A stretch of 24,888 nucleotides of DNA from Rickettsia typhi. Its GTDB lineage: Bacteria > Pseudomonadota > Alphaproteobacteria > Rickettsiales > Rickettsiaceae. The stretch's first letter is position 1, and each line of letters starts with the position of its first letter. Below the pieces are notes generated by a model, which saw nothing but the letters and a program-made list of their open reading frames with translations, searched no databases and was not told where the DNA came from. Position numbers and translations under genes: made by a program. Below are positions 13,178 through 23,555 of the stretch, piece after piece. Location: assembly GCA_945907105.1 (NCBI GenBank), contig CAMDSB010000018.1, positions 1 through 24,888 of the forward strand, given 5' to 3'.

Positions 13178-14965
13178 TCAATAATTATCCCAGAGCATTC
13201 TGTATATTATGCCATCTTTTTGAAGCGTGGTATGTGGTCCGTCTTCGACAATATGGCCATCAGCAAAGACTAGTATTCGATCCATATGTAATAATGTTGA
13301 AAGCCTGTGAGCGATAACTAATACAGTTTTGCCAAACATCAATTTTTGGAGAGATTTTTGTATTAGTTGTTCTGTGTGGCTATCAAGTGAGTTAGTAGCT
13401 TCATCCAAAATAAGGATTGGTGCTTTTTTAAGGAATGCCCTAGCAATACTAATTCTTTGTCTTTGACCACCAGAGAAGTTATTGCCTCTTTCGCCACAGA
13501 TAGTATCATACTGATCAGGCAGACCTATGATAAAGTCGTGTATGTATGCTGCTTTTGCCGCCTCTATTAGTTCTTCATCGGATGCAGTTGGATTAGAATA
13601 TAAAATATTTTCTCGAATAGAGCGGTGAAAAAGAATTGGTTCTTGAGGTATGACTGATATATTTTTATGCAAACTATCAAGGGAAACCTGGCTGATATCT
13701 TGTCCGTCAATTAGGATGGTTCCGCTTTCTATCTCATATAATCTAGAAATCATATTGGTAAAAGTGGTTTTTCCTGATCCAGAAAAGCCTGCGAGGCCAA
13801 CTCTTTCATGTGGAAGAATAGATATAGATTTATTGTCAAAGCTATTGTCATTATTACGAAAACGAAAAGTTACATTTTTAAATTCGATAGATGGAGATTC
13901 AACATATAAATTTTTTGCTCCCGGACTATCTTTAATAGAATATTCTTCGAGTAAGCTAATGCTTTGATTAAATGCACCGATTTGTTCAAACAGGTCACCA
14001 AACTCTTGAGTTAAATCCCAAATGTCCTCAATAACAGATATACAGAGTGTTATAATAAGAACGCATTGACCGATTGTTATTTCAAGATTACTACGCAAAG
14101 ATATTATATAGTAGATCATGAAGCCGATCATTACAGTGCAGGACAAGCCTAGTGCATATCTAAGTTTGAACATAAACCACTGTAAGCGTTGATCGCTTCT
14201 TACAGTATTATGTATGTATTTTTTAAGGTATTTTCGCTCAAATCTATGAGAAGAAAACATTCTAATTACAGAGCTATTTGATATAGCATCAACAATCTTG
14301 CCAGAAACAAGAGCCTTATCTTTGCTAAATACCCTAGAGTAATTATTTATTGTTTTAGAAAAATATAAACTAGTGCCAATAAATACAAAGAGCCAACAAA
14401 AGAAAATAAACGCAACAGTCGAGTGGACAGAGTATAAAGTTGCTAACGCGAATATTAAAACAGATAATTTTCGGACAATTGATTCATTAATATAAGCAAA
14501 AACCATTTCTATGGATCTTGAAGCTTCGGATATCCTATTGGTGATATCCCCAGCAAGATTTGATTGAAAAAATTCATGGCTGTGATGTTGGACGTAATCG
14601 TAAAATTCATCCGTGACATGTGCTTTAATTTTTGGTATTGCTTTTAGGTATAGATAGTCATAAACTCGCCATAATATATTTAAACTTTCCCACCATAAAG
14701 CATAGATTATAACCCACTTGAAGAGTAAAGTTGGCAAATCAACATTTGACAATGCTTTATCCGAGTATGCTTCAATGGAGTCAGTGATATTTTGAAGAAA
14801 TAAACTATCTATTGAAGGTACTAGTCCAGTTAAAAGAGCTAGAGTAATTAAAAGCAATACTTGTTTTTTCTGGCTAGAAAAAAGGAAGTGCATATATAGT
14901 TTAAAAGTGGTGAGCTGCGTTTTTTTAGAATTAATAGAATCGATAAAAGAGATATTATTCTGCAT
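13178..14965 (-). CDS. ABC exporter, fused membrane and ATPase domains (second copy of the type)
   Basis: 595-residue half-transporter with six hydrophobic segments (about 30-310) followed by an ATPase domain: Walker A GFSGSGKTT (393-401), Q-loop VIPQEPILF, signature FSGGQ (497-501), Walker B ILILDEATNSLDS with Asp521-Glu522, and AHRLSTLL H-loop. Phe replaces the usual Leu of LSGGQ, a tolerated change; catalytic residues are intact. It is clearly paralogous to the exporter at 6461-8233, sharing for example HRLSTLLxMDRILVF and the HIVEDGPHTTL-type ending, but the membrane domains differ, so substrates may differ. The 212 bases immediately upstream hold the end of a degraded gene on the same strand. 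Substrate unknown. Confidence 0.93.
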   Translation of the reverse strand: MQNNISFIDSINSKKTQLTTFKLYMHFLFSSQKKQVLLLITLALLTGLVPSIDSLFLQNITDSIEAYSDKALSNVDLPTLLFKWVIIYALWWESLNILWRVYDYLYLKAIPKIKAHVTDEFYDYVQHHSHEFFQSNLAGDITNRISEASRSIEMVFAYINESIVRKLSVLIFALATLYSVHSTVAFIFFCWLFVFIGTSLYFSKTINNYSRVFSKDKALVSGKIVDAISNSSVIRMFSSHRFERKYLKKYIHNTVRSDQRLQWFMFKLRYALGLSCTVMIGFMIYYIISLRSNLEITIGQCVLIITLCISVIEDIWDLTQEFGDLFEQIGAFNQSISLLEEYSIKDSPGAKNLYVESPSIEFKNVTFRFRNNDNSFDNKSISILPHERVGLAGFSGSGKTTFTNMISRLYEIESGTILIDGQDISQVSLDSLHKNISVIPQEPILFHRSIRENILYSNPTASDEELIEAAKAAYIHDFIIGLPDQYDTICGERGNNFSGGQRQRISIARAFLKKAPILILDEATNSLDSHTEQLIQKSLQKLMFGKTVLVIAHRLSTLLHMDRILVFADGHIVEDGPHTTLQKDGIIYRMLWDNY

Positions 14966-15046
14966 ATTAAGGTAATACCTCTTAAATTTACTTGTACACC
15001 TAACTGTGCTATCTAAACTGACAAGAGATTATAGCATATTTGCGTA

Positions 15047-15262
15047 TCAATGCAATTTTTTTGCAGCCCTTTGAGGTAAGAAGTAAATACATCCAATAAT
15101 GAATATTAGCAATAAAGCTGAAGAAGAAAAGCGGCTCAGGTCTAAACCACCTAGTTCAATAGGCTTATCCAGAAAGTCTCCAACAACAGCACCAAGTGGC
15201 CGAGTTAGTATGAATGCTGACCAAAAAAAGAAGGATCCTAGATATATTTGTAAAGTATGTAG
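15047..15262 (-). pseudogene. C-terminal remnant of a COG4705-like membrane protein
   Basis: Reading the minus strand gives an uninterrupted frame of about 72 codons ending in TGA at 15047-15049. It contains FWSAFILTRPLGAVVGDFLD, then KPIELGGLDLSRFSSSALLL and a final hydrophobic helix ending LPQRAAKKLH. FW.AF.LTRPLGA..GD with a following GGL is the hallmark of the C-terminal helices of the uncharacterised multi-pass COG4705 family. An in-frame stop (15269-15271) closes the frame upstream and there is no start codon in the conserved part, so the N-terminal helices are lost. The neighbouring ABC gene is downstream on the same strand. Confidence 0.75.
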
Positions 15263-15378
15263 CCGATTTTAGTACGTATTATTGGTAATAAAAAATGAAG
15301 TGTCAGCATGTCTTGATATCTAGCAAAATATATGTTAATATGAAAAATATATTTTAATAAATTTAATCATAGTTGTTA

Positions 15379-15624
15379 ATGTCAGTAATTGAAGCAGAAA
15401 AAATAGTAGAAAGTAAGGAAGAAATGTCAACGAATGACATTTTTTCTGACATAAAATATATCTGTGGTTCTACATCACTTATTGTAGAGTCTCTACAAAA
15501 AGGCCTTGATATAGCTCAGCTCCCAACAGGAGATGTTATAGTAACTGAAGTTAAGACTATTAACACCCACTATTGCTGGGACAAAAATAAGCAAAAAATG
15601 ATTAAAATCAGCCAAACCCAATAA
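15379..15624 (+). CDS. Small conserved-looking protein, function unknown
   Basis: 81-residue soluble protein starting at ATG 15379; an in-frame TTG two codons upstream is a less likely start. It has an acidic, Glu/Lys-rich N-terminus (about 1-20) and a compact part with DIFSDIKYICGSTSLIVESL, GLDIAQLPTGDVIVTEVKTINTHYCWD and a basic end. The balanced composition and two well-formed predicted strands (GDVIVTEV) suggest a real gene. From memory it resembles small Rickettsiales-restricted proteins (perhaps the DUF2671 group), unverified. No Shine-Dalgarno is visible. It is followed by a likely terminator, so it is a separate unit from the pentapeptide genes. Confidence 0.6.
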   Translation: MSVIEAEKIVESKEEMSTNDIFSDIKYICGSTSLIVESLQKGLDIAQLPTGDVIVTEVKTINTHYCWDKNKQKMIKISQTQ

Positions 15625-15636
15625 CAGGTTTTTTTT
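15614..15636 (+). terminator. Probable intrinsic terminator of the small protein gene
   Basis: AAACC (15614-15618) pairs with GGTTT (15627-15631) across an 8-base loop and runs into eight T's (15629-15636). The stem is short and overlaps the stop codon of the 81-residue gene, but the T-tract is the best plus-strand one here. Confidence 0.5.
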
Positions 15637-15700
15637 GCGTCAGAGTTTGCTATAAAAATCATCATTCATTTTGAATCACGCTCCTTGATGGTGTAGTTGT

Positions 15701-15717
15701 CAAAACGCCTCGTTTTG
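15701..15717. repeat. Short stable hairpin upstream of the pentapeptide genes
   Basis: CAAAACG (15701-15707) and CGTTTTG (15711-15717) form a perfect 7-bp stem with a 3-base loop; GTT/AAC just outside extends it past a small bulge. It could be a terminator half or an operator upstream of the 1000-residue gene. Confidence 0.4.
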
Positions 15718-15753
15718 TAACTAATAATTTAAATTGATCTAAGATAGTCTTAA

Positions 15754-15759
15754 TATAAT
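15754..15759 (+). promoter_or_regulatory. Consensus -10 box upstream of the pentapeptide genes
   Basis: TATAAT at 15754-15759, 67 bases before the ATG of the first pentapeptide gene. The best -35 is TTGATC only 14 bases upstream, or a poor AAATTG at 17. A GGAG (15814-15817) 8 bases before the ATG is the ribosome binding site. Confidence 0.4.
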
Positions 15760-15825
15760 TATCTCTTCGGTCTAATATTTTATACAATATATAAAAATGT
15801 AAATAATATTAGTGGAGAATGGATA

Positions 15826-18800
15826 ATGTCTAAAGTGCCCACAGAGCCTCAGTCAGACACGATAAAGCCAATAAATCTTTCGGTTGCAGTAAAAAGGCAC
15901 CCTATGGATGACGGGGGTTTGCAAGATTTTCTTGAGGCTAGGGGAAAAAATGATCCAATCGCCCAAGGTTCTTTAGTCGAGTATGTTAAGGAAAAATTCT
16001 ATAAAGGTCAAAATGTAGTAGTTGTTCCAGACTTATCTGGCCAGCATATTGAAGGGGCTCATGATTTAAGGGGAGTAGACTTCTCTGGAGTAAAACTAAC
16101 AGGGGCTCATTTTCAGTTTTGTAATCTAGAAGGGGCAAGTTTCTGCGATGCAGATTTGTCAAAAGTGGATTTCTTTGACTGTGAAATGGCTGGTTCTGAT
16201 ATGAGAGGTGCGGATTTAAGCTTTTGCAAAATTGCAGGGTTTGGAGAAAAGTGGGAGGCATACAAGAAAGAAGTAGATAATGCAAAAAGAGATCATCTTC
16301 CGGTGCCTGAAGTACCGGAGGCTTTAGTAAAGAATTATAAGGGTATGAAATTTAGCTCTACGGCTGATTTGATGACTTTGTATGGTGAGATCAATAGGGT
16401 AATTTTAAGTGATGCGGAAAAAGAGTTTGGCCAAGAGAAGCAAGCAAAGTTACTCCTGAAGGATAAAGAGATAAGTGAAGCATATAAAGGCCTTACTTAT
16501 ATTCAAAGTGGTTATGTTCGAACCGGATTTGATTCAGGCAATGAGAAATATGACAAACTAGTTAGAGAGCGCGCTGCGATAGATAGGAGTGTTTTAGATA
16601 AAGAAACAGTAAAATATATAATAGATCCAAGCTTTGTATATATACCAAAAAATCCAGAAAGCTTTGATCCTGGATATGTCAGAGGGAGTAATAAAAAAGA
16701 AAGAGAACAGGAGAAACAATATGTTGAATTAAACAGAGGAGACGTTGAAGCTTACCTTTTAGCATTAAAAACTACTCCAGATTTAACATTAAATGATTTT
16801 GCTAAATCAAAGGCTGCTGAAAAGGGCATTGAGTTACATGAAGGATCAAAGCCAGTAGCTTATGCTAAATATGGAACAGATCTGTCAAACCTAGACTTTA
16901 CTGGTGCAAACTTACAAGAGGCTTGTTTTGTAGGAGCGGCCTTTAGAGGGTGTAATTTTACCGGAGCTAACCTAAGTAAGGCTATATTTGAATCTGCTGT
17001 TATCACGGGGGCGACATTTCAAAATACACGAGCAGAAGATGCAAACTTTTTTCACTGTTTCCTTGATAGATCGACAGTTGTTGATAGTAGTTTTAAACGT
17101 GCGTTTATGAGAGGATCCGAAGCTACTAAGATGCAGATAACGGGCTCTAATTTTGACTATTCTGACGTTATAAATGGCAAATGGGATGGAGTTAATATTC
17201 AAGATGCCACATTTAATTATGCTAATTTAGAAGGGATCTCTCTAGCAAATGCTAAACTTAGTCAAGTTAAGATGCAGCATGCGATGCTTGAAAAAGCAAT
17301 ATTAAACGGTTGTGAAATTATTGAATCTGACTTAACGGGGGCCTTTCTCGAAAGTGCTAAAGTTACGAAAGCAAAAATTAAGGACACTGTTCTTAATGAC
17401 GTGGATGCAAGAAAGATTGATTTAACAGACACTGAAATTGATAAGCTTTGCAAACTTGAAGGAGCAGATCTTGATAATGCAATAATGAAAATGGTAAAGG
17501 CGGACGGGGTTAATTTCGTTGGCGCTCATATGGATGGTGTTAATCTAGAGCATGCTCAGATGAAAGAAGCTGTTCTCGAGGGCGTAAGTATGAGGTTTGC
17601 TAATCTCGAGGGAGCTGTGCTTGAAGGTGTTAGGGCGAATGGTGTTGATATGACCGGTGCAAACGTGACCGACATAAACGCAAAAAAAGGGCAGTTTAAA
17701 GAAGCAATCTTAGAAGGTATAGAAGGTAAGAAGGCAGATTTTACAGAAGCAGTTATGGAGGGTGCAAACCTTAGAGGAGCTAAAGTACAAGAAGCAATAA
17801 TGGAAAAAGTCAACTTGAAGAAAGCTGACTTGCGTAATGCAGAGCTGCAAAAGGCAAACCTTAAAGAGGCTGAAGTAGAAGGCGTTAAAATTAATGAAGG
17901 AACTGATATTGATAAGGCAGAGATCACTGGAGTAAAAGGAATAGCCATTCATGAAGGTGTAGATGGTGAAAAAAAACCAATGAAGCTCGAGACAAAAAAG
18001 GAGATGGACGCCCAAGTTCATGCAGCAGAGGGGAAGGGTTTTTTCTCTAAATTAGCTGGTAATGTATTAAAAGGTGTTGGAGGAGGTTGTAAAAAAGTTG
18101 CGGATTTTATTCGGCAGCCAATTAGCACAAAATGGGGGCGAATAATCGGTGCGGTAGCGGGAGCTTTAATTGTTGGTGCAATTGTAGCAAGTGCAGTGGT
18201 AACTGGCGGGGCAAGTTTAGTGGTTATTGCTGGCGCTGTTGCTGGTGCTGTTGCAGTGGGGGCTGTTGTCGGAGCCGTAGCTGGACATTTTGGAGCTAAG
18301 CATATGGGGCTTTCTACCGTTGCAGCTGGTGTTGCTGGTGGAGTTCTAATCCCGGGCCCTGTAGGTGTAGGTGTTGGCTTAGCTGTAGGAGTAGGTGCAA
18401 ATAAGGTGGTCAAAGTAGCTACAGGTATAGTCACAGGTACAGAGCAGTCAATAGATGAGCTTGGCGGCAATCTTGTAGAGGGTGTAGGTAATGCAGCGAA
18501 AAAATTAGGAGAACATGTAGGAGTATCGGAACAGCAAGAGAAACTGCTTGCTGCTAAGCAGAAATGTCAAGAACAATATGTTGCTCCAGAAAAAGAGCAT
18601 GCTAAAGGAAAAGGCAATGGCAAGGAAGCGTTTGCAAAGGGGCGTGAAGAAGCTGTAAGGTTAGATGAAATGGGGGTTGAAGTTCCAGTACAAAGTGTAA
18701 GTAAAGAGAAACCCAAAACTCATAGTCTAAGTGATGGGCTAAAGGGAGTTAAAGAGGCTCTTAGTAGAAGCGAGCCAGTTGTTGAAACGCGGCCGCGTTC

Positions 18801-18828
18801 TAAGGAGGTAAGCTCTAGGGAATTATGA
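15826..18828 (+). CDS. Large pentapeptide-repeat protein with C-terminal glycine-zipper-like hydrophobic region
   Basis: 1000-residue protein with no recognised enzyme domain. In order: a non-repeat N-terminus with helical stretch DDGGLQDFL...LVEYVKEKF (about 27-58); a first pentapeptide block (about 69-138) of the A(D/N)LxX type; a middle region (about 139-349) with GMKFSST at 173 and YLLALKTTPDLTLNDFAK ending at residue 327; a second long block (about 350-705) that becomes less regular toward its end (repeats such as EAVLEGV, EAIMEKVN); a Gly/Ala/Val-rich hydrophobic region (about 771-871) able to form several membrane helices; and a Lys/Arg/Glu-rich tail ending VETRPRSKEVSSREL. The blocks should fold as right-handed quadrilateral beta-helices. 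No Sec signal peptide is visible. An effector or membrane-inserting role is inference only. It is followed after 7 bases by a paralogue. Confidence 0.9.
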   Translation: MSKVPTEPQSDTIKPINLSVAVKRHPMDDGGLQDFLEARGKNDPIAQGSLVEYVKEKFYKGQNVVVVPDLSGQHIEGAHDLRGVDFSGVKLTGAHFQFCNLEGASFCDADLSKVDFFDCEMAGSDMRGADLSFCKIAGFGEKWEAYKKEVDNAKRDHLPVPEVPEALVKNYKGMKFSSTADLMTLYGEINRVILSDAEKEFGQEKQAKLLLKDKEISEAYKGLTYIQSGYVRTGFDSGNEKYDKLVRERAAIDRSVLDKETVKYIIDPSFVYIPKNPESFDPGYVRGSNKKEREQEKQYVELNRGDVEAYLLALKTTPDLTLNDFAKSKAAEKGIELHEGSKPVAYAKYGTDLSNLDFTGANLQEACFVGAAFRGCNFTGANLSKAIFESAVITGATFQNTRAEDANFFHCFLDRSTVVDSSFKRAFMRGSEATKMQITGSNFDYSDVINGKWDGVNIQDATFNYANLEGISLANAKLSQVKMQHAMLEKAILNGCEIIESDLTGAFLESAKVTKAKIKDTVLNDVDARKIDLTDTEIDKLCKLEGADLDNAIMKMVKADGVNFVGAHMDGVNLEHAQMKEAVLEGVSMRFANLEGAVLEGVRANGVDMTGANVTDINAKKGQFKEAILEGIEGKKADFTEAVMEGANLRGAKVQEAIMEKVNLKKADLRNAELQKANLKEAEVEGVKINEGTDIDKAEITGVKGIAIHEGVDGEKKPMKLETKKEMDAQVHAAEGKGFFSKLAGNVLKGVGGGCKKVADFIRQPISTKWGRIIGAVAGALIVGAIVASAVVTGGASLVVIAGAVAGAVAVGAVVGAVAGHFGAKHMGLSTVAAGVAGGVLIPGPVGVGVGLAVGVGANKVVKVATGIVTGTEQSIDELGGNLVEGVGNAAKKLGEHVGVSEQQEKLLAAKQKCQEQYVAPEKEHAKGKGNGKEAFAKGREEAVRLDEMGVEVPVQSVSKEKPKTHSLSDGLKGVKEALSRSEPVVETRPRSKEVSSREL

Positions 18829-18838
18829 TGATATAATG
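18801..18838 (+). promoter_or_regulatory. Gene junction with strong Shine-Dalgarno and overlapping starts and stops
   Basis: TAAGGAGGT (18801-18809) lies inside the end of the first pentapeptide gene but 27 bases from the start at 18836. Between them ATG ATG ATA TAA (18825-18836) overlaps the upstream TGA (18826-18828), and its own TAA shares one base with the downstream ATG. This could be reinitiation coupling; the sequence arrangement is certain, the function is not. Confidence 0.4.
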
Positions 18839-21241
18839 AATAAAACTGAATCTAAAAAAGTGTTATTTGTGGAGAGTAATGATTCGCATGAGAAAAAGCG
18901 GGCTGCTGCTGGTCGAGTGCTTAAAATTACATCACTAACAGTAGATGACACTAGGGGAACAAGACATAAAGAGGGGATTAAGTTTATGTCGGAGAAAGTC
19001 AAACATTCCGATATAGTGTCTTATATTTTATGGCTTAGCAATAGAAAAAAAGGAGAACATTCATTTAATCATTTTCTTACAAAGCGAGATTCTACAAAGA
19101 ATTCGAAAACTATTATTGTGGCCGACTTCTCTAATTTAACGATTGGTAGCGCCAAAGCGAGAGAGTATTTAGATTTGCGATCGGCAAATTTTATTGGTTC
19201 AATATTTCATAATACAAGTTTTATCGGTTGCGATTTAAGAAACGCAAAATTTTGTGGCGTTCACTTAGAAAAAGTCTTGTTTAAGGAATCTAGTCTCAGT
19301 TTTGTTGATTTTAGTCGTGCTGATTTAAGTAGTTGCAGTTTTGATAAGAGCTATTGCTCTGCGCCGTGGAATGTAATTGAAGGCGTGAAATTTAGCTCTA
19401 CAGTCTCATGCATTAGGTTATATGCAGATATTAAAAACGAAATAGCCAAAAAGAATGAACAACAGAGGGTGCTTGATAACAAGCGTATGCAGCTTGAAGA
19501 AGTCAAGAAGCGCACACCTCTTTTGACTAAAATTGGAGTATCATTAAGATTATGTAAAGCGGTTGGAGAATATGCTAAAGTACGTCATGAATACAAAAAG
19601 ATGAAAGAGGGGGACTTTCATTTTGATCATATTATTCATGGCAGTTTTAGTAATATATTTAAAGCAGAAACTTTTATATTTGATCCAGTTTCTTTACCAG
19701 GAGAAGCGTATAGTAATAATAAAATTAGAAAAAAATACATTGCTCTAACACGTGACCATTTGATTGAGTATTTGAAGAGGCTTAAGCAAACAAAAACTTT
19801 GTCATTGAATGATTTTGCGAAAGAGCTTTATATAACCTCAGCTACTAAAGAAATTAAGCCGGATAAAGAGCTTAAGATCATTGCTGACCTATCCAGCAAG
19901 GTGAATATGTTCGGTAACAATGAGTGGAGTAGATTGAATTTATCAGAACTAGATTTTACTAATGCTGATTTGTCAGGGACTAATTTTTCAGGATCTAATT
20001 TAAAGAATAGTAACTTTAAGGGTTCAAATATTACTAACGCTAGTTTTGAAAGTGCGCTGGTAACTGACGCAGTTTTTCTAAATACAGTGGCAATAAATAG
20101 CAATTTTTATAACGCTGATATAACAGGTAGTCATTTGGAAAAATCAGATTTTTCTGGAGCTATATTTAGTTGGAGCAAGTGTTCAGGCGCCATTTTAAGT
20201 GATGTAAAAATGGATTATTTACAAGCAAATAACTCTGTTTGGAAAGTGGTGAAATTGGAGAGAGTTTCTTTAAATAATAGTGATTTTACCGCTACTGATT
20301 TTAGAGGAGCAAAGTTTTTGAAAATTCAAGCTAAGAGCTCATTATTCAATGACAGCCTTCTGAATAACATACATTTGGACGAATGTGTTTTTGACAAATC
20401 TATATTTGATAGAGTGACAGCCATTCATACAATTTGGGATAATTGCATTGCTAATCAAATCGAGGCAAGAAGATCAAACTTTACAGGTAGTAAATTTGCT
20501 GAAGGAAGTCGATTTGAAAAATCAGATTTCTCATACTCTATTTTTGATGGAGTTAAAGCACCAAGAGGACATTTTGCAGGGGCGGTATTAAACCACATAA
20601 AGGCTGGATGTACCAAATTCGCTGATAGCTGTTTTGAAAATGCTTCGTTTAAATTCGCCGATTTAAATAGTTGCATTATGAGTCAATCAAACTGCCAAAA
20701 AGCAGATTTTACAGGAGCTAAATTATTTAATGTTACAATGACTGGCGCGAATTTGAAAGGCTCAGCTCTGGTTGGTGCTTGCGTTGAGGCGTCTGATCTG
20801 AGCAGAGTAAATTTTGAAAATTCTAATTGGAAAGACTTGCATGCCAAAGACTCTATACTTAATAACATAAATAATCATCGCGTCCTAATTAATGATAATA
20901 CTGAAGTTGTCGGTTGTACTTATAAAGCTATTGAGGGCCAATTTTACTATTATGATGAAGAGAATTTTATGGATATAATGTTTATTGAACAGTTTGAGTC
21001 TAATTTAAAACGAGTGGCAAATGCTGAAAGGATAAGAAAATTAGGTTTCTTATCTTATGCTTTAAAATGGTTTTCTAAGGGGTACAATATTTCAACTAAA
21101 GAAGTAAGGAAGTCGCATAATTATAAGCTACATAATAAAAATGAATTAAAGAAATATCTAAAAAAACTTATATCAGAAGAAAATCATGGACAGGATGTAA
21201 GGTTGTTTAGAATAAAAAATTTTTATAATGAGAGCATGTAA
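18836..21241 (+). CDS. Second large pentapeptide-repeat protein, paralogue of the gene before it
   Basis: 801-residue protein laid out like its upstream neighbour but without the hydrophobic C-terminal region. Order: basic N-terminus; helical module HSDIVSYILWL...HFLTK; first pentapeptide block (about 96-178); middle region with GVKFSST at 183 and YLKRLKQTKTLSLNDFAK ending at about 329; second block (about 351-690); and a basic C-terminal tail (about 715-801, ALKWFSKGYN...LKKYLKKL). Matching landmarks fall at nearly equal positions in the two proteins, so they arose by duplication. The ATG at 18836 has a distant AGGG; ATG 18986 (residue 51) has GAGGGG nine bases upstream and is a real alternative start, giving 751 residues. 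No signal peptide or catalytic motif is visible. Function unknown. Confidence 0.88.
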   Translation: MNKTESKKVLFVESNDSHEKKRAAAGRVLKITSLTVDDTRGTRHKEGIKFMSEKVKHSDIVSYILWLSNRKKGEHSFNHFLTKRDSTKNSKTIIVADFSNLTIGSAKAREYLDLRSANFIGSIFHNTSFIGCDLRNAKFCGVHLEKVLFKESSLSFVDFSRADLSSCSFDKSYCSAPWNVIEGVKFSSTVSCIRLYADIKNEIAKKNEQQRVLDNKRMQLEEVKKRTPLLTKIGVSLRLCKAVGEYAKVRHEYKKMKEGDFHFDHIIHGSFSNIFKAETFIFDPVSLPGEAYSNNKIRKKYIALTRDHLIEYLKRLKQTKTLSLNDFAKELYITSATKEIKPDKELKIIADLSSKVNMFGNNEWSRLNLSELDFTNADLSGTNFSGSNLKNSNFKGSNITNASFESALVTDAVFLNTVAINSNFYNADITGSHLEKSDFSGAIFSWSKCSGAILSDVKMDYLQANNSVWKVVKLERVSLNNSDFTATDFRGAKFLKIQAKSSLFNDSLLNNIHLDECVFDKSIFDRVTAIHTIWDNCIANQIEARRSNFTGSKFAEGSRFEKSDFSYSIFDGVKAPRGHFAGAVLNHIKAGCTKFADSCFENASFKFADLNSCIMSQSNCQKADFTGAKLFNVTMTGANLKGSALVGACVEASDLSRVNFENSNWKDLHAKDSILNNINNHRVLINDNTEVVGCTYKAIEGQFYYYDEENFMDIMFIEQFESNLKRVANAERIRKLGFLSYALKWFSKGYNISTKEVRKSHNYKLHNKNELKKYLKKLISEENHGQDVRLFRIKNFYNESM

Positions 21242-21261
21242 CAAAGATAGTGAATTGATAC

Positions 21262-21290
21262 TTGCTATAAAATATTAAATAGTTTATGCT
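21262..21290 (+). promoter_or_regulatory. Probable promoter of the initiator tRNA
   Basis: TTGCTA (21262-21267), 17-base spacer, TATGCT (21285-21290), each matching consensus at 4 of 6 positions, 56 bases before the tRNA. This lies in the 105-base gap after the second pentapeptide gene, where I saw no convincing terminator. Confidence 0.45.
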
Positions 21291-21346
21291 GCCAATTGAT
21301 TACACAGGAAAGTAAAGACTTTTTCGATTGTCAATTTCCTCATTAG

Positions 21347-21423
<77 letters not shown>

Positions 21424-21433
21424 TTAATATAGC

Positions 21434-21446
21434 TAGAAGTCTTCTA
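21434..21446. terminator. Small palindrome between tRNA-fMet and lspA
   Basis: TAGAA (21434-21438) pairs with TTCTA (21442-21446) over a 3-base loop, 11 bases after the tRNA. There is no T-tract, so a terminator role for either convergent gene is weakly supported. Confidence 0.25.
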
Positions 21447-21476
21447 CCTAGGCTCTATCTGCAGAGTTTATATATC

Positions 21477-21968
21477 TTAGGCCTTCTTATCTTCGCGATA
21501 CCAGTCAATTATATAACTATATATAAAGCACCCTGCACCTATGGTGATAAAACTATCGGCCAGATTAAATGCTGGGAAAGACAATTCATGATAATGAAAA
21601 TACAAAAAGTCAAAAACTGCACCACGAAATATTCGATCAAATAGATTGCCAAGTGCGCCTCCTAATATAAAGGCCAGTCCAGTTTGAAAGAAAATGCTAT
21701 TAGACTTATAAAATATGTAGGATAAGTAAATAATGATAAGACTATTAAAAGCTAAGAATAGGTAGTTACTATATTGATGATACTCTCGAAACAAGCCAAA
21801 ACTAATGCCGTGGTTCCATGCATAAACAAAGTCTAAGAAAGGAAAAATTTCTTTCAGATATCCAGGTTCAGTTTTTAGATGGTAGATAAGTAGAGTTTTT
21901 GAAGTCTGATCAGCTCCAACTAAAACGAATATCATGAATAAATAATAGACTAATGTTTTCTTAGTCAT
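21477..21968 (-). CDS. lspA: Lipoprotein signal peptidase (signal peptidase II)
   Basis: Integral membrane aspartyl protease that removes signal peptides from diacylglyceryl prolipoproteins. With the ATG at 21966-21968 the protein is 163 residues, the family norm; AAGAGG sits just upstream. The frame continues 15 codons to a TTG, but that start has no ribosome binding site and adds an atypical polar stretch. Four hydrophobic segments are visible, with ADQTSK at 19-24, WNHGISFG at 51-58, the catalytic Asp120 in GAVFDF, and Asp138 in FNLADS. Downstream of the M23 peptidase gene on the same strand but 219 bases away with a palindrome between, so probably transcribed separately. Confidence 0.95.
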   Translation of the reverse strand: MTKKTLVYYLFMIFVLVGADQTSKTLLIYHLKTEPGYLKEIFPFLDFVYAWNHGISFGLFREYHQYSNYLFLAFNSLIIIYLSYIFYKSNSIFFQTGLAFILGGALGNLFDRIFRGAVFDFLYFHYHELSFPAFNLADSFITIGAGCFIYSYIIDWYREDKKA

Positions 21969-22076
21969 TAGACCTCTTGAGTAATTAATTTCTATCGGTA
22001 ATTTTATTGTCAAATTTGCGCCTTCGCTTTAAATACAAAAGTACATAGCAGATTGGCTGCGCTTTTCCTAAAAGTT

Positions 22077-22111
22077 CCTATTATTATGTAATTAAATTAC
22101 ATAATAATAGG
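22077..22111. terminator. 35-base perfect palindrome downstream of the M23 peptidase gene
   Basis: Two 17-base arms, CCTATTATTATGTAATT and its exact complement, flank a single central A. It lies 77 bases past the stop of the minus-strand peptidase gene and upstream of lspA. On the minus strand the sequence after it is only mildly T-rich. Terminator, mRNA-stabilising stem or dispersed AT palindrome are all possible. I see no gene in the rest of 21969-22187. Confidence 0.6.
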
Positions 22112-22187
22112 TTAGTGTAATTTTGGGAAGGCCAAGTTTCTGTCACGATCTCGCTAGCTACTAAAAACACCTGGGATTATTAGCATG

Positions 22188-23555
22188 TTAATATAGTTTT
22201 ATACTTGGAACCTCGGCAGCTGTAAGCTCAATTTTGCTATTTAGCTTCTTATTCAAATTATGCATTTGCGTTTTAAAAGCATTGAACTTCGATAGCTTTG
22301 AGCCGGCCAGTTTTATCGACGGTGTAGATTTAAACTCCACTGGATTCACTTGTTTCCCATTTACATGCACTTCATAATGCAAGTGGGGGCCAGTAGCATG
22401 ACCTGTACTTCCAACATAGGCGATTATGTCTCCTTGCTTAACTTTTGAGCCTACTTTTAAGTTATTGGCAAATTTTGAGGCGTGAGCATAAGCTGTAGAT
22501 AGGCCATTTCTGTGTTTTATAAGAACAAAACGCCCATATCCAGATTTCCAACCAACGAATTGTACTACTCCTTCACCAGCTGCGTAAATTGGAGTCCCAG
22601 CTGAAGCGGCAAAGTCAACTCCTTTATGCATTCTGCCGAATCCAAGAATAGGGTGCTTCTTTCTATATCCAAAGTGTCCAGAGATTCTGACTACATCAAT
22701 TGGGGTTTTTAGTAAAGCACTTTTGATGCTTTGACCTTCTTCTGAAAAGAACTCAACATCGGCTTCTTTACCGCTTGGGGAGTATAAATAAATGTTATAA
22801 TCCGTACCGGCTGAAGTAAGAGAAGCATGCAGTATTTTTCCATGATGAGAAAATTCATTATCAGAAGTAACGAATTTCTCTGTTATCACAACAATTTTAT
22901 CGCCAGTCTTTATCTGTCTTTGAAAGTCAATTTGGTGAGAATAAGCATTTACTAATTTTATTATGGTACTAGTGCTGATACCAGCTTGTTGTAATGAAGC
23001 AATCAAGCTTGTATTAATAGTAGTTTCATATTTACTGATAAGTTTTTTCAGTGGTGCAGATATGTTGTGAATCACAAAATCTTCCCCAATTCTAACAAAC
23101 TCCAGGGATCGAGTAGTGTCAATTTTTATTGACATCCTGCTCAGAATTAGGCGCTCTTCAACTAGTTCAGATTCTTCTTGTTCAACTAGCTCAACTTCAT
23201 AATAAAATTTAAGTACTTGACCAATACCTAATTTAGATAAGAGTGGCTGAGTAGATGCAGATTTAATTAAACTTTGTATTTCTGAGTTACTTAGATTTTG
23301 TTTTTTGAGAATTGTGCTTAATGTATCACCTTTCTCTATTACCACTTCGCTAACTATTTCTTCAACGTCATCTTTACTTATATCTCCCGACATATTCCAT
23401 AAAGTTCCTGGTAATCTATCGCTTATATAGTCACTGAAAAGAAAAACGGTTGAGGTTGCAATTAATATTGATAAGAACAAAGAGGTGCGCTGAGCAACTT
23501 TTTGAAATAAAAAAAATGTTGAGTACGCAAATAAGATGCGAATTATTTGAGTCAT
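22188..23555 (-). CDS. M23 family metallopeptidase (LytM domain), membrane-anchored
   Basis: Probable peptidoglycan DD-endopeptidase of the MepM/YebA type. The 455 residues comprise a short cytoplasmic N-terminus, one membrane anchor (about 24-41), a LysM/OapA-like region with VVIEKGDTLSTILKKQNLS (about 71-90), a central beta-rich region, and the LytM domain (about 295-410). The zinc site is complete: His310 and Asp314 in MHKGVDFA, His393 in HLHYE, with catalytic His391. A basic C-terminal extension of about 45 residues follows. An intact peptidase implies that the bacterium still remodels peptidoglycan. The 235-base gap upstream separates it from the next minus-strand gene. Confidence 0.93.
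   Translation of the reverse strand: MTQIIRILFAYSTFFLFQKVAQRTSLFLSILIATSTVFLFSDYISDRLPGTLWNMSGDISKDDVEEIVSEVVIEKGDTLSTILKKQNLSNSEIQSLIKSASTQPLLSKLGIGQVLKFYYEVELVEQEESELVEERLILSRMSIKIDTTRSLEFVRIGEDFVIHNISAPLKKLISKYETTINTSLIASLQQAGISTSTIIKLVNAYSHQIDFQRQIKTGDKIVVITEKFVTSDNEFSHHGKILHASLTSAGTDYNIYLYSPSGKEADVEFFSEEGQSIKSALLKTPIDVVRISGHFGYRKKHPILGFGRMHKGVDFAASAGTPIYAAGEGVVQFVGWKSGYGRFVLIKHRNGLSTAYAHASKFANNLKVGSKVKQGDIIAYVGSTGHATGPHLHYEVHVNGKQVNPVEFKSTPSIKLAGSKLSKFNAFKTQMHNLNKKLNSKIELTAAEVPSIKLY

What the first reader, a model, noticed from the sequence alone, without database searches (positions are those of the whole stretch)
15826..21241. Tandem collinear pentapeptide-repeat giants: a candidate two-protein system
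Two adjacent genes encode 1000- and 801-residue proteins with the same layout: helical module, short beta-helix, linker, helical module, long beta-helix. Landmarks occur at nearly equal positions: G(M/V)KFSST at 173 and 183, LNDFAK at 322 and 324, second block start at about 350 in both. Only the first has a hydrophobic C-terminal region. Duplication followed by division of roles (one membrane-inserting, one soluble partner) is a plausible but unproven reading.
Basis: partly seen in the sequence, partly recalled or inferred. Interest (0 to 1): 0.75.

Follow-up and report, generated by a model that had tools for sequence, protein, structure and literature searches.

The report
Tandem SrfD-like effector gene pair
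Two neighbouring genes of a Rickettsia relative encode large look-alike proteins of the same family as SrfD, a protein that Rickettsia sends into host cells and that binds the protein-export channel of the endoplasmic reticulum; one of the two has a membrane-anchor-like end and the other does not, which suggests that the family is older than Rickettsia and may work as a pair.

Summary
Gene A (15826-18828, 1000 aa) and gene B (18836-21241, 801 aa) are collinear paralogues: cap, short pentapeptide beta-helix, helical module, second cap, long beta-helix. Their non-repeat parts are homologous by profile comparison, and AlphaFold2 gives both the same order of elements. Only A has a hydrophobic C-terminal region. 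New here: the small cap before each beta-helix appears to be an internal duplicate.

A matches collinearly, over about 700 columns, the ~960-aa Rickettsia ORF that I identify as SrfD, a secreted, ER-localised, Sec61-binding effector (PMC11258249). That paper says only Rickettsia encodes full-length SrfD homologues; A is a full-length counterpart in other Rickettsiaceae. B keeps the three SrfD modules reported as needed for Sec61 binding, lacks the anchor, and has its own conserved C-terminus.

B was found in 7 of 85 genomes of the family; A lies directly upstream in 6 of the 7. A-type genes also occur alone. In two relatives a LepB/Risk2-like kinase candidate follows B.

Best reading: two secreted effectors, A anchored and B soluble, acting at the host ER. 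Family membership is well supported; secretion and Sec61 binding are inferred from SrfD; an A-B complex is untested.

The parts
15826..18828 (+). Gene A, 1000 aa, SrfD-type protein with hydrophobic C-terminal region
   Evidence: ORF; profile alignment to the SrfD group over 704 columns, E 1e-83; homologues
15886..16032 (+). A cap 1 (residues 21-69), strand-helix-helix-strand
   Evidence: AlphaFold2; profile comparison with second caps
16084..16233 (+). A first pentapeptide beta-helix (residues 87-136)
   Evidence: periodicity score; Pfam pentapeptide families; model
16237..16713 (+). A helical module (residues 138-296), counterpart of SrfD CC1
   Evidence: profile match with the B, R and SrfD groups; long helix 180-221
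16714..16866 (+). A cap 2 (residues 297-347), contains LNDFAK
16900..17892 (+). A second, long pentapeptide beta-helix (residues 359-689)
18130..18399 (+). A hydrophobic region (residues 769-858), predicted membrane helices
   Evidence: hydropathy; low confidence in the model
18451..18768 (+). A C-terminal helices (residues 876-981); by position the counterpart of SrfD CC2
   Evidence: partly low confidence; position only, no sequence match shown
18836..21241 (+). Gene B, 801 aa, paralogue without hydrophobic region
   Evidence: ORF; homologues; model
18980..19126 (+). B cap 1 (residues 49-97)
19193..19342 (+). B first pentapeptide beta-helix (residues 120-169)
19349..19729 (+). B helical module (residues 172-298)
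   Evidence: model, low confidence at 171-205 and 263-295
19730..19888 (+). B cap 2 (residues 299-351), contains LNDFAK
19973..20860 (+). B second, long pentapeptide beta-helix (residues 380-675)
20903..21238 (+). B C-terminal domain (residues 690-801); the family consensus carries GQFYHYDEDNFMDIMFIEQ
   Evidence: consensus of B relatives; database search with residues 685-801 gave 24 proteins, all carrying pentapeptide domains; no match to A, R or SrfD C-termini
15373..15624 (+). Small gene upstream of A, DUF2671 (83 aa); also upstream of A in L002, L003, L004/L067 and L062
   Evidence: Pfam PF10877; tblastn and blastp

Best explanation
A and B are two members of the SrfD family of rickettsial secreted effectors, encoded as an operon-like pair. 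Most likely both are exported into the eukaryotic host cell, plausibly by the rvh type IV secretion system. A works like SrfD: its two capped beta-helices and the helical module between them form a rigid docking scaffold for an ER partner such as Sec61, and its C-terminal hydrophobic region inserts in the membrane. B has the same docking scaffold without the anchor, and a different conserved C-terminal domain, so it would be a soluble companion that binds the same site or binds A. Shown: homology, predicted architecture, linkage, purifying selection. Inferred from SrfD: export, ER targeting, Sec61 binding. Conjecture: A-B complex and division of labour.
For: SrfD: secreted by R. parkeri, ER-localised, co-precipitates Sec61; PPR1, CC1 and PPR2 each needed, TM and CC2 mostly dispensable. 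The ~960-aa ORF in Rickettsia-like genomes is SrfD: in L054, 9 of 11 residues named in that paper's constructs fall in register (2 at offset 0, 7 at +2; best other single offset 5 of 11; 0.78 expected); its neighbours, by my reading of Pfam hits, are RluB-, RsmD- and RadA-like (L054 for the first two, L056 for the third), names that the paper lists among genes flanking srf loci. A aligns with it from A24/S6 to A763/S753, E 1e-83; non-repeat parts alone: cap E 7e-6, central module E 9e-9 (reversed controls 0.16 and 0.067), juxtamembrane segment E 2e-8. A groups with SrfD 98/99. B aligns with SrfD, E 3e-51. T4SS coupling-protein family PF02534 over cut-off in 7 of 7 genomes with B. A directly before B in 6 of 7. 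dN/dS about 0.13 for both, against 0.03 for two housekeeping neighbours.
Against: Secretion and Sec61 binding were shown for SrfD of one Rickettsia, not for these proteins. [quoted passage not shown] The SrfD branch is long (1.54); SrfD with B instead of A is not firmly rejected (p-AU 0.066). The alignment stops just before the hydrophobic region, so the anchor itself is shared by position and character, not by alignment. G006 has B but no A was found; G021 has A with no B after it. Expression of SrfD did not change secretion of a Sec61 client, so even the prototype's function is open.
Confidence: 0.62

Rival explanations
1. Two independent SrfD-family effectors that merely sit side by side; each has its own host target and they never meet.
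For: A-type genes occur without B, and B occurs without A in G006. C-terminal domains of A and B do not match. In the best tree they split before A and SrfD did.
Against: In 6 of the 7 genomes with B, A is directly upstream on the same strand, with 3 to 97 bases between.
Confidence: 0.45
2. Bacterial scaffold or envelope proteins that stay in the bacterium: A anchored in the inner membrane, B its cytoplasmic partner.
For: No export signal was shown; pentapeptide proteins with internal roles exist (HetL, MfpA, Qnr; names). Neighbouring genes are housekeeping.
Against: The closest characterised relative is secreted. The central module was found only in Rickettsiaceae among the genomes searched, and the two genes have about four times the dN/dS of two neighbours.
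Confidence: 0.15
3. DNA-mimic gyrase-binding or topoisomerase-protection proteins (Qnr/MfpA type), or an anti-phage pair (Hailong HalA type).
For: NCBIfam matches to Qnr, MfpA and HalA models.
Against: Qnr, MfpA and HalA scores are far below the curated cut-offs (for A: HalA 40.8 against 250, Qnr 97.5 against 240, MfpA 66.7 against 360), as expected for any pentapeptide repeat; architecture and size differ.
Confidence: 0.02

Closest known systems
SrfD of Rickettsia parkeri (PMC11258249; passages and sections 7, 10, 11 read)
   Same: Gene A: same order and nearly same positions of PPR1, helical module, PPR2, hydrophobic region and C-terminal helices; profile homology of both repeat and non-repeat parts
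   Different: Different Rickettsiaceae lineage; long branch between; A is followed by a tandem paralogue; flanking genes differ from those at the SrfD locus
~1460-aa paralogue in other Rickettsiaceae genomes (L051, L052, L053, L063, L065)
   Same: Same caps, helical module and two beta-helices by alignment; very strong module match to A and B (E 4e-37, 6e-40)
   Different: Long C-terminal part that matches neither A nor B, no comparable hydrophobic region; in L051, L052, L063 and L065 it follows a gene related to the window's gene 1723-2973, which in L052 is a 2-oxoacid dehydrogenase E2
cREM-4, candidate rvh effector (PMC11077975; passages read)
   Same: ~950 aa, internal pentapeptide repeat, RvhD4 interaction reported for the R. 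typhi protein, ancestral duplication reported
   Different: Could not be matched to a sequence here: the passages read give no locus tag for it, and supplements were not available. It may or may not be SrfD
PipB2, PipB and NleL/SopA effectors
   Same: Secreted effectors that contain a pentapeptide beta-helix (names)
   Different: Far below the NCBIfam cut-offs (for A: PipB2 129.8 against 354, PipB 98.2 against 274, HECT-type family 60.3 against 500); the duplicated cap and helical module were not looked for in them

Membership tests
SrfD family (gene A) | PPR1 - CC1 - PPR2 - TM - CC2 order at matching positions | tested here: met
   SrfD constructs 57-116, 126-257, 305-686, 766-821, 848-890 (order of domains); A 87-136, helices 141-253, cap 2 plus PPR2 297-689, hydrophobic 769-858, helices 876-917. 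The last is by position only
SrfD family (gene A) | Homology outside the repeats | tested here: met
   cap 7e-6, central module 9e-9 (reversed controls 0.16 and 0.067), juxtamembrane 2e-8
SrfD family (gene A) | Groups with SrfD in a tree of the wider family | tested here: inconclusive
   98/99 support, but SrfD+B not rejected, p-AU 0.066
SrfD family (gene A) | Secreted into host; ER localisation; Sec61 binding | not testable with these tools
   experimental, shown for SrfD
SrfD (gene B as SrfD proper) | C-terminal transmembrane helices | tested here: not met
   no hydrophobic stretch; C-terminus does not match. B is a paralogue within the wider family, not SrfD
SrfD wider family (gene B) | Capped PPR1, helical module, capped PPR2 | tested here: met
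   cap 3e-10, module 4e-6, whole 3e-51; model
rvh type IV substrate | Genome encodes a T4SS coupling protein of the RvhD4 kind | tested here: met
   PF02534 over cut-off in 7 of 7 genomes with B; that it is RvhD4 is my reading; the window's own genome is not held
rvh type IV substrate | Binding to RvhD4 or translocation | not testable with these tools
   -
Qnr / MfpA / HetL / HalA pentapeptide families | Score over the curated NCBIfam cut-off | tested here: not met
   all of these below cut-off for both genes. The only NCBIfam model over its cut-off is the 113-position Alr5209-family pentapeptide model, for A (141.7 against 125); B is below it (73.2)

The most novel reading that the evidence does not exclude
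A and B are a two-protein effector machine for the host ER: an anchored SrfD and a soluble partner that assemble on Sec61. In two relatives (L002/G002 and L066/G003) the gene right after B encodes a LepB/Risk2-like lipid-kinase candidate, making a three-gene ER-remodelling effector operon. The family arose before Rickettsia, and Rickettsia keeps only part of it.
Probability: 0.25. Interest if true: 0.82.

Novelty: new variant of a known kind. Interest (0 to 1): 0.62.

Why it matters
SrfD is a rickettsial secreted protein with a reported host partner, and why it binds Sec61 is open. The paper describing it states that only Rickettsia encodes full-length homologues. Finding the architecture in other Rickettsiaceae, next to a paralogue that naturally lacks the anchor, moves its likely origin back, marks which modules evolution keeps (two caps, two beta-helices, helical module), and gives a ready comparison of anchored and soluble forms plus a candidate partner.

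Tried and rejected
No whole genome is held for the window, so 'own genome' tests were made on relatives. The first genome-contig scan found nothing; the second found six loci. Plasmid and phage collections gave generic pentapeptide matches under 60% identity, none covering 80% of the query (B against plasmids; A against phages). The profile of the central module found no convincing solved structure; the best of 6 hits, E 0.01, is a chimera of a Helicobacter protein. Foldseek against PDB: the top 50 rows that I saw of 220 (A) and 425 (B) are pentapeptide proteins and other beta-helix proteins with low TM-scores. Promoter and terminator scans: 26 promoter-like sites against 18.3 (sd 4.0) expected, 6 terminator-like against 3.3 (sd 1.9), all 6 of these on the minus strand, so none of this kind follows A on its own strand. 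Rfam shows only the tRNA in 14900-22200. A shared C-terminal tail (TRxRS) between A and the kinase-like neighbour of two relatives was tested: shuffle p 0.003, 0.014 and 0.036 in 3 of 6 comparisons, 0.21 to 0.57 in the other 3, and 0.27 to 0.93 for the 6 with B tails; the motif, chosen after seeing it, is in the last 25 residues of 4 of 236 complete ORFs, 2 A-type and the 2 kinase-like ones. Kept as a lead only. I first took weak second hits in SrfD-bearing genomes for decayed duplicates (written so in a notebook entry); several lie in ~600-aa pentapeptide ORFs, so I do not claim that. Literature searches, in a library without preprints and most subscription papers: SrfD, (one paper, PMC11258249); rickettsial pentapeptide proteins.

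Full report
What is there. The window is from a member of the Rickettsiaceae: its relatives in the genome collection carry record titles such as 'Rickettsiaceae bacterium' and 'Rickettsiales bacterium' (one, L003, is titled Rickettsia typhi and one, L004, Alphaproteobacteria bacterium; I take the first for a misnamed assembly, an inference), and the window holds a TLC ATP/ADP transporter. Genes A and B lie at 15826-18828 and 18836-21241 on the + strand, 7 bases apart. Upstream is a DUF2671 gene (15373-15624). Downstream are a tRNA-Met (21347-21423) and, on the other strand, signal peptidase II (21477-22013).

BLASTP gives 25% over 625 aa, E 2e-47. Since repeats inflate such scores, I cut the non-repeat parts out of family alignments and compared profiles: cap E 7e-8, central module E 8e-17, C-terminus no match (0.11); reversed central profiles gave at least 0.038 in 12 of 12 pairings (the cap and C-terminus had no reversed control in that call). 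AlphaFold2 models (12 and 21 sequences; mean pLDDT 74.1 and 73.4, pTM 0.63 and 0.55) show the same order of elements in both. The hydrophobic part and the end of A, and the N-terminus, parts of the helical module and parts of the C-terminus of B, are of low confidence.

Internal duplication. In both models the same strand-helix-helix-strand cap stands before the short and before the long beta-helix. Profile comparison of the first cap with the central module of the four groups (16 pairings) finds the end of that module, in register, in 15: E from 8e-7 to 3e-4 in 11, weaker (1e-3 to 2e-2) in four, and nothing for SrfD against itself. Reversed controls gave 0.025 or worse, so the weakest of the four stand hardly above them. 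So each protein looks like a doubled unit, cap plus beta-helix, with a helical domain inserted. Support is good in the B and ~1460-aa groups against themselves (9.5e-6, 2e-6) and weak in A against itself (0.011).

Identity. A search for rickettsial pentapeptide effectors led to SrfD of R. parkeri. From the paper (PMC11258249; passages and sections 7, 10, 11 read): SrfD is secreted, sits at the ER, co-precipitates Sec61 alpha and beta, has domains in the order PPR1, CC1, PPR2, TM, CC2, and its deletion constructs take out 57-116, 126-257, 305-686, 766-821 and 848-890. In the 85 genomes of the family of G003, one search shows 14 with an ORF of 953-973 aa of this family (three of them examined in full, L054-L056; the rest typed by length and score). 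In L054 this ORF has 9 of the 11 residues named in the paper's constructs in register, against 5 at the best other single offset and 0.78 expected; blocks at 60-114 and 370-681 and a hydrophobic part from 762; and neighbours that I read from Pfam hits as RluB-, RsmD- and, in L056, RadA-like, names that the paper gives among srf-flanking genes. I conclude that it is SrfD. This was done without a named sequence, so it is a strong inference rather than a lookup.

A is SrfD-like along most of its length. The profile of A aligns with that of SrfD from A24 to A763, 704 columns, E 1e-83, nearly without shift through the long beta-helix (A360/S356, A500/S496, A680/S677). The last aligned segment is a non-repeat juxtamembrane stretch (E 2e-8), directly before the hydrophobic region in both. 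B aligns with SrfD too (B48-727, E 3e-51), but its own C-terminus does not match that of SrfD (E 0.62) and it has no hydrophobic region. In a tree of 42 rows (40 different) and 752 columns, B (15 rows), A (14), SrfD (4) and the ~1460-aa type (5) are each single groups with support of 100/99 or better; A and SrfD join at 98/99; four further single members (X) do not form one group. Caveats: the SrfD branch is long and the program warns of long branches meeting; holding SrfD with B costs 12 log units, p-AU 0.066; with the ~1460-aa type 11, p-AU 0.015; A with B 15, p-AU 0.060.

Distribution and linkage. The central-module profile finds 45 of 343 Rickettsiales genomes, all among the 85 of one family, three of them (G045, G055, G056) only by weak matches in other or short ORFs, and 0 of the other 258; in a sample of the class only G003 itself matches, 1 of 385. 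B-type genes are in 7 of the 85 genomes (G001-G006, G037; from the scores and the comparisons; a 464-aa piece at a contig end in G077 I take, from its score, for the ~1460-aa type). A lies directly upstream in 6 of the 7: gaps 7 (L001), 31 (L002), 6 (L066), 11 (L067), 97 (L057) bases by mechanical start codons, and in G005 a 216-aa A-like end stands 3 bases before B at a contig end while the rest of an A-type gene stands at the end of another contig. In G006 B has no A beside it and none was found in the assembly. A occurs without B after it in G021; in G036 the contig ends 322 bases after A (no B start found in either place). In the protein database, A and B homologues share contig lengths 61628, 119313 and 96705, which suggests three pairs, the first being identical to the window's genes.

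Selection and recombination. Against the relative L066, dN/dS is 0.136 for A and 0.134 for B; for two neighbours, an ABC transporter and isocitrate dehydrogenase, 0.035 and 0.032; against L001, 0.125 (part of A) and 0.198 (B). Both genes are kept but change faster than these housekeeping genes. In L002, A is a mosaic: 31-63% identical to the window's A in windows up to about its residue 540, then 80-93% up to about 960, falling to 67-78% at the very end; B there matches the window's at 74-82% and the upstream DUF2671 at 84%. Both flanks being close argues against a plain assembly error, but that was not excluded.

How it most likely works. Shown: homology, predicted fold, linkage, purifying selection, and presence of a T4SS coupling protein in 7 of 7 genomes with B. 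Inferred from SrfD: export and ER/Sec61 docking by PPR1, helical module and PPR2, all present in A and B. In SrfD the TM region was mostly dispensable for Sec61 binding, and SrfD without it stayed at the ER, so B is expected to be able to dock without an anchor. Conjecture: B is a soluble partner or competitor of A, its conserved C-terminal domain (consensus GQFYHYDEDNFMDIMFIEQ) acting where A has its anchor. Against: SrfD's export route is unknown and its effect on Sec61 clients was not seen.

An effector cluster in relatives. In L002 and L066 the gene right after B, same strand (36 and 47 bases later), encodes a 519- or 530-aa protein, 82% identical between the two, with a Pfam LepB_N match just under cut-off (24.9 and 24.0 against 25) and a segment SGDHDVNPGN...RIDFGHAF that I read as the kinase active site described for Risk2 and LepB (PMC11077975, passages; the reading of the motif is mine). 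It is not after B in the window or in L001.

Compared with what is known. Works like SrfD: likely. Is a member: A, by the sequence features that could be tested, yes, with the tree test inconclusive; the experimental features could not be tested. B is a paralogue in the wider family, not SrfD, since it lacks the anchor. The paper's statement that only Rickettsia spp. encode full-length SrfD homologues is extended here. cREM-4 of PMC11077975 may overlap; its sequence could not be checked. Pentapeptide effectors in other bacteria (PipB2, NleL) share the repeat only, far below cut-offs. Searches for SrfD in this library found one paper. One other paper (PMC13134042, passages) mentions an expressed pentapeptide repeat protein among putative effectors of Megaera, and PMC10847448 (one passage) counts pentapeptide proteins among putative Rickettsiales effectors; neither passage names this family.

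Noticed in passing
L002:1120-4302 (gene A of G002): Mosaic gene: first half closer to the L057/L058 type, second half close to the window's A, breakpoint inside the long beta-helix near residue 520-540.
   Followed up: partly
L002:6776-8335 and L066:4630-6222: Gene right after B in two relatives: LepB_N-like just under cut-off, possible Risk2-type lipid kinase; not after B in the window.
   Followed up: partly
L051, L052, L053, L063, L065: A ~1460-aa relative of the pair with the same N-terminal half and a long C-terminal part without a recognised domain beyond pentapeptides (Pfam scan of L052's only). One search shows it in 13 of 85 genomes (ORFs 1435-1485 aa; 658 aa in G072), two of them (G083, G072) with stop codons inside the matched stretch; the G083 ORF itself is open over 1478 aa.
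   Followed up: partly
G003:C8, G001:C57, G002:C5, G004:C60, G006:C133 (L018): A further pentapeptide protein of about 590-616 aa in these five genomes, and ORFs of like length in others of the family.
   Followed up: no
L049:8562-11994 (G084): A 768-aa family member is followed by an overlapping 387-aa ORF on the same strand; possibly a longer gene that is split. Not mended.
   Followed up: no
window 15373-15624: DUF2671 gene stands before A in the window, L002, L003, L004/L067 and L062; whether it is linked in function is unknown.
   Followed up: partly
C-terminal tails of A in L066 and L067 and of the kinase-like genes in L002 and L066: All four hold a TRxRS-type motif in the last 25 residues, as does the window's A; weak and post hoc, but a possible shared export signal.
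   Followed up: partly
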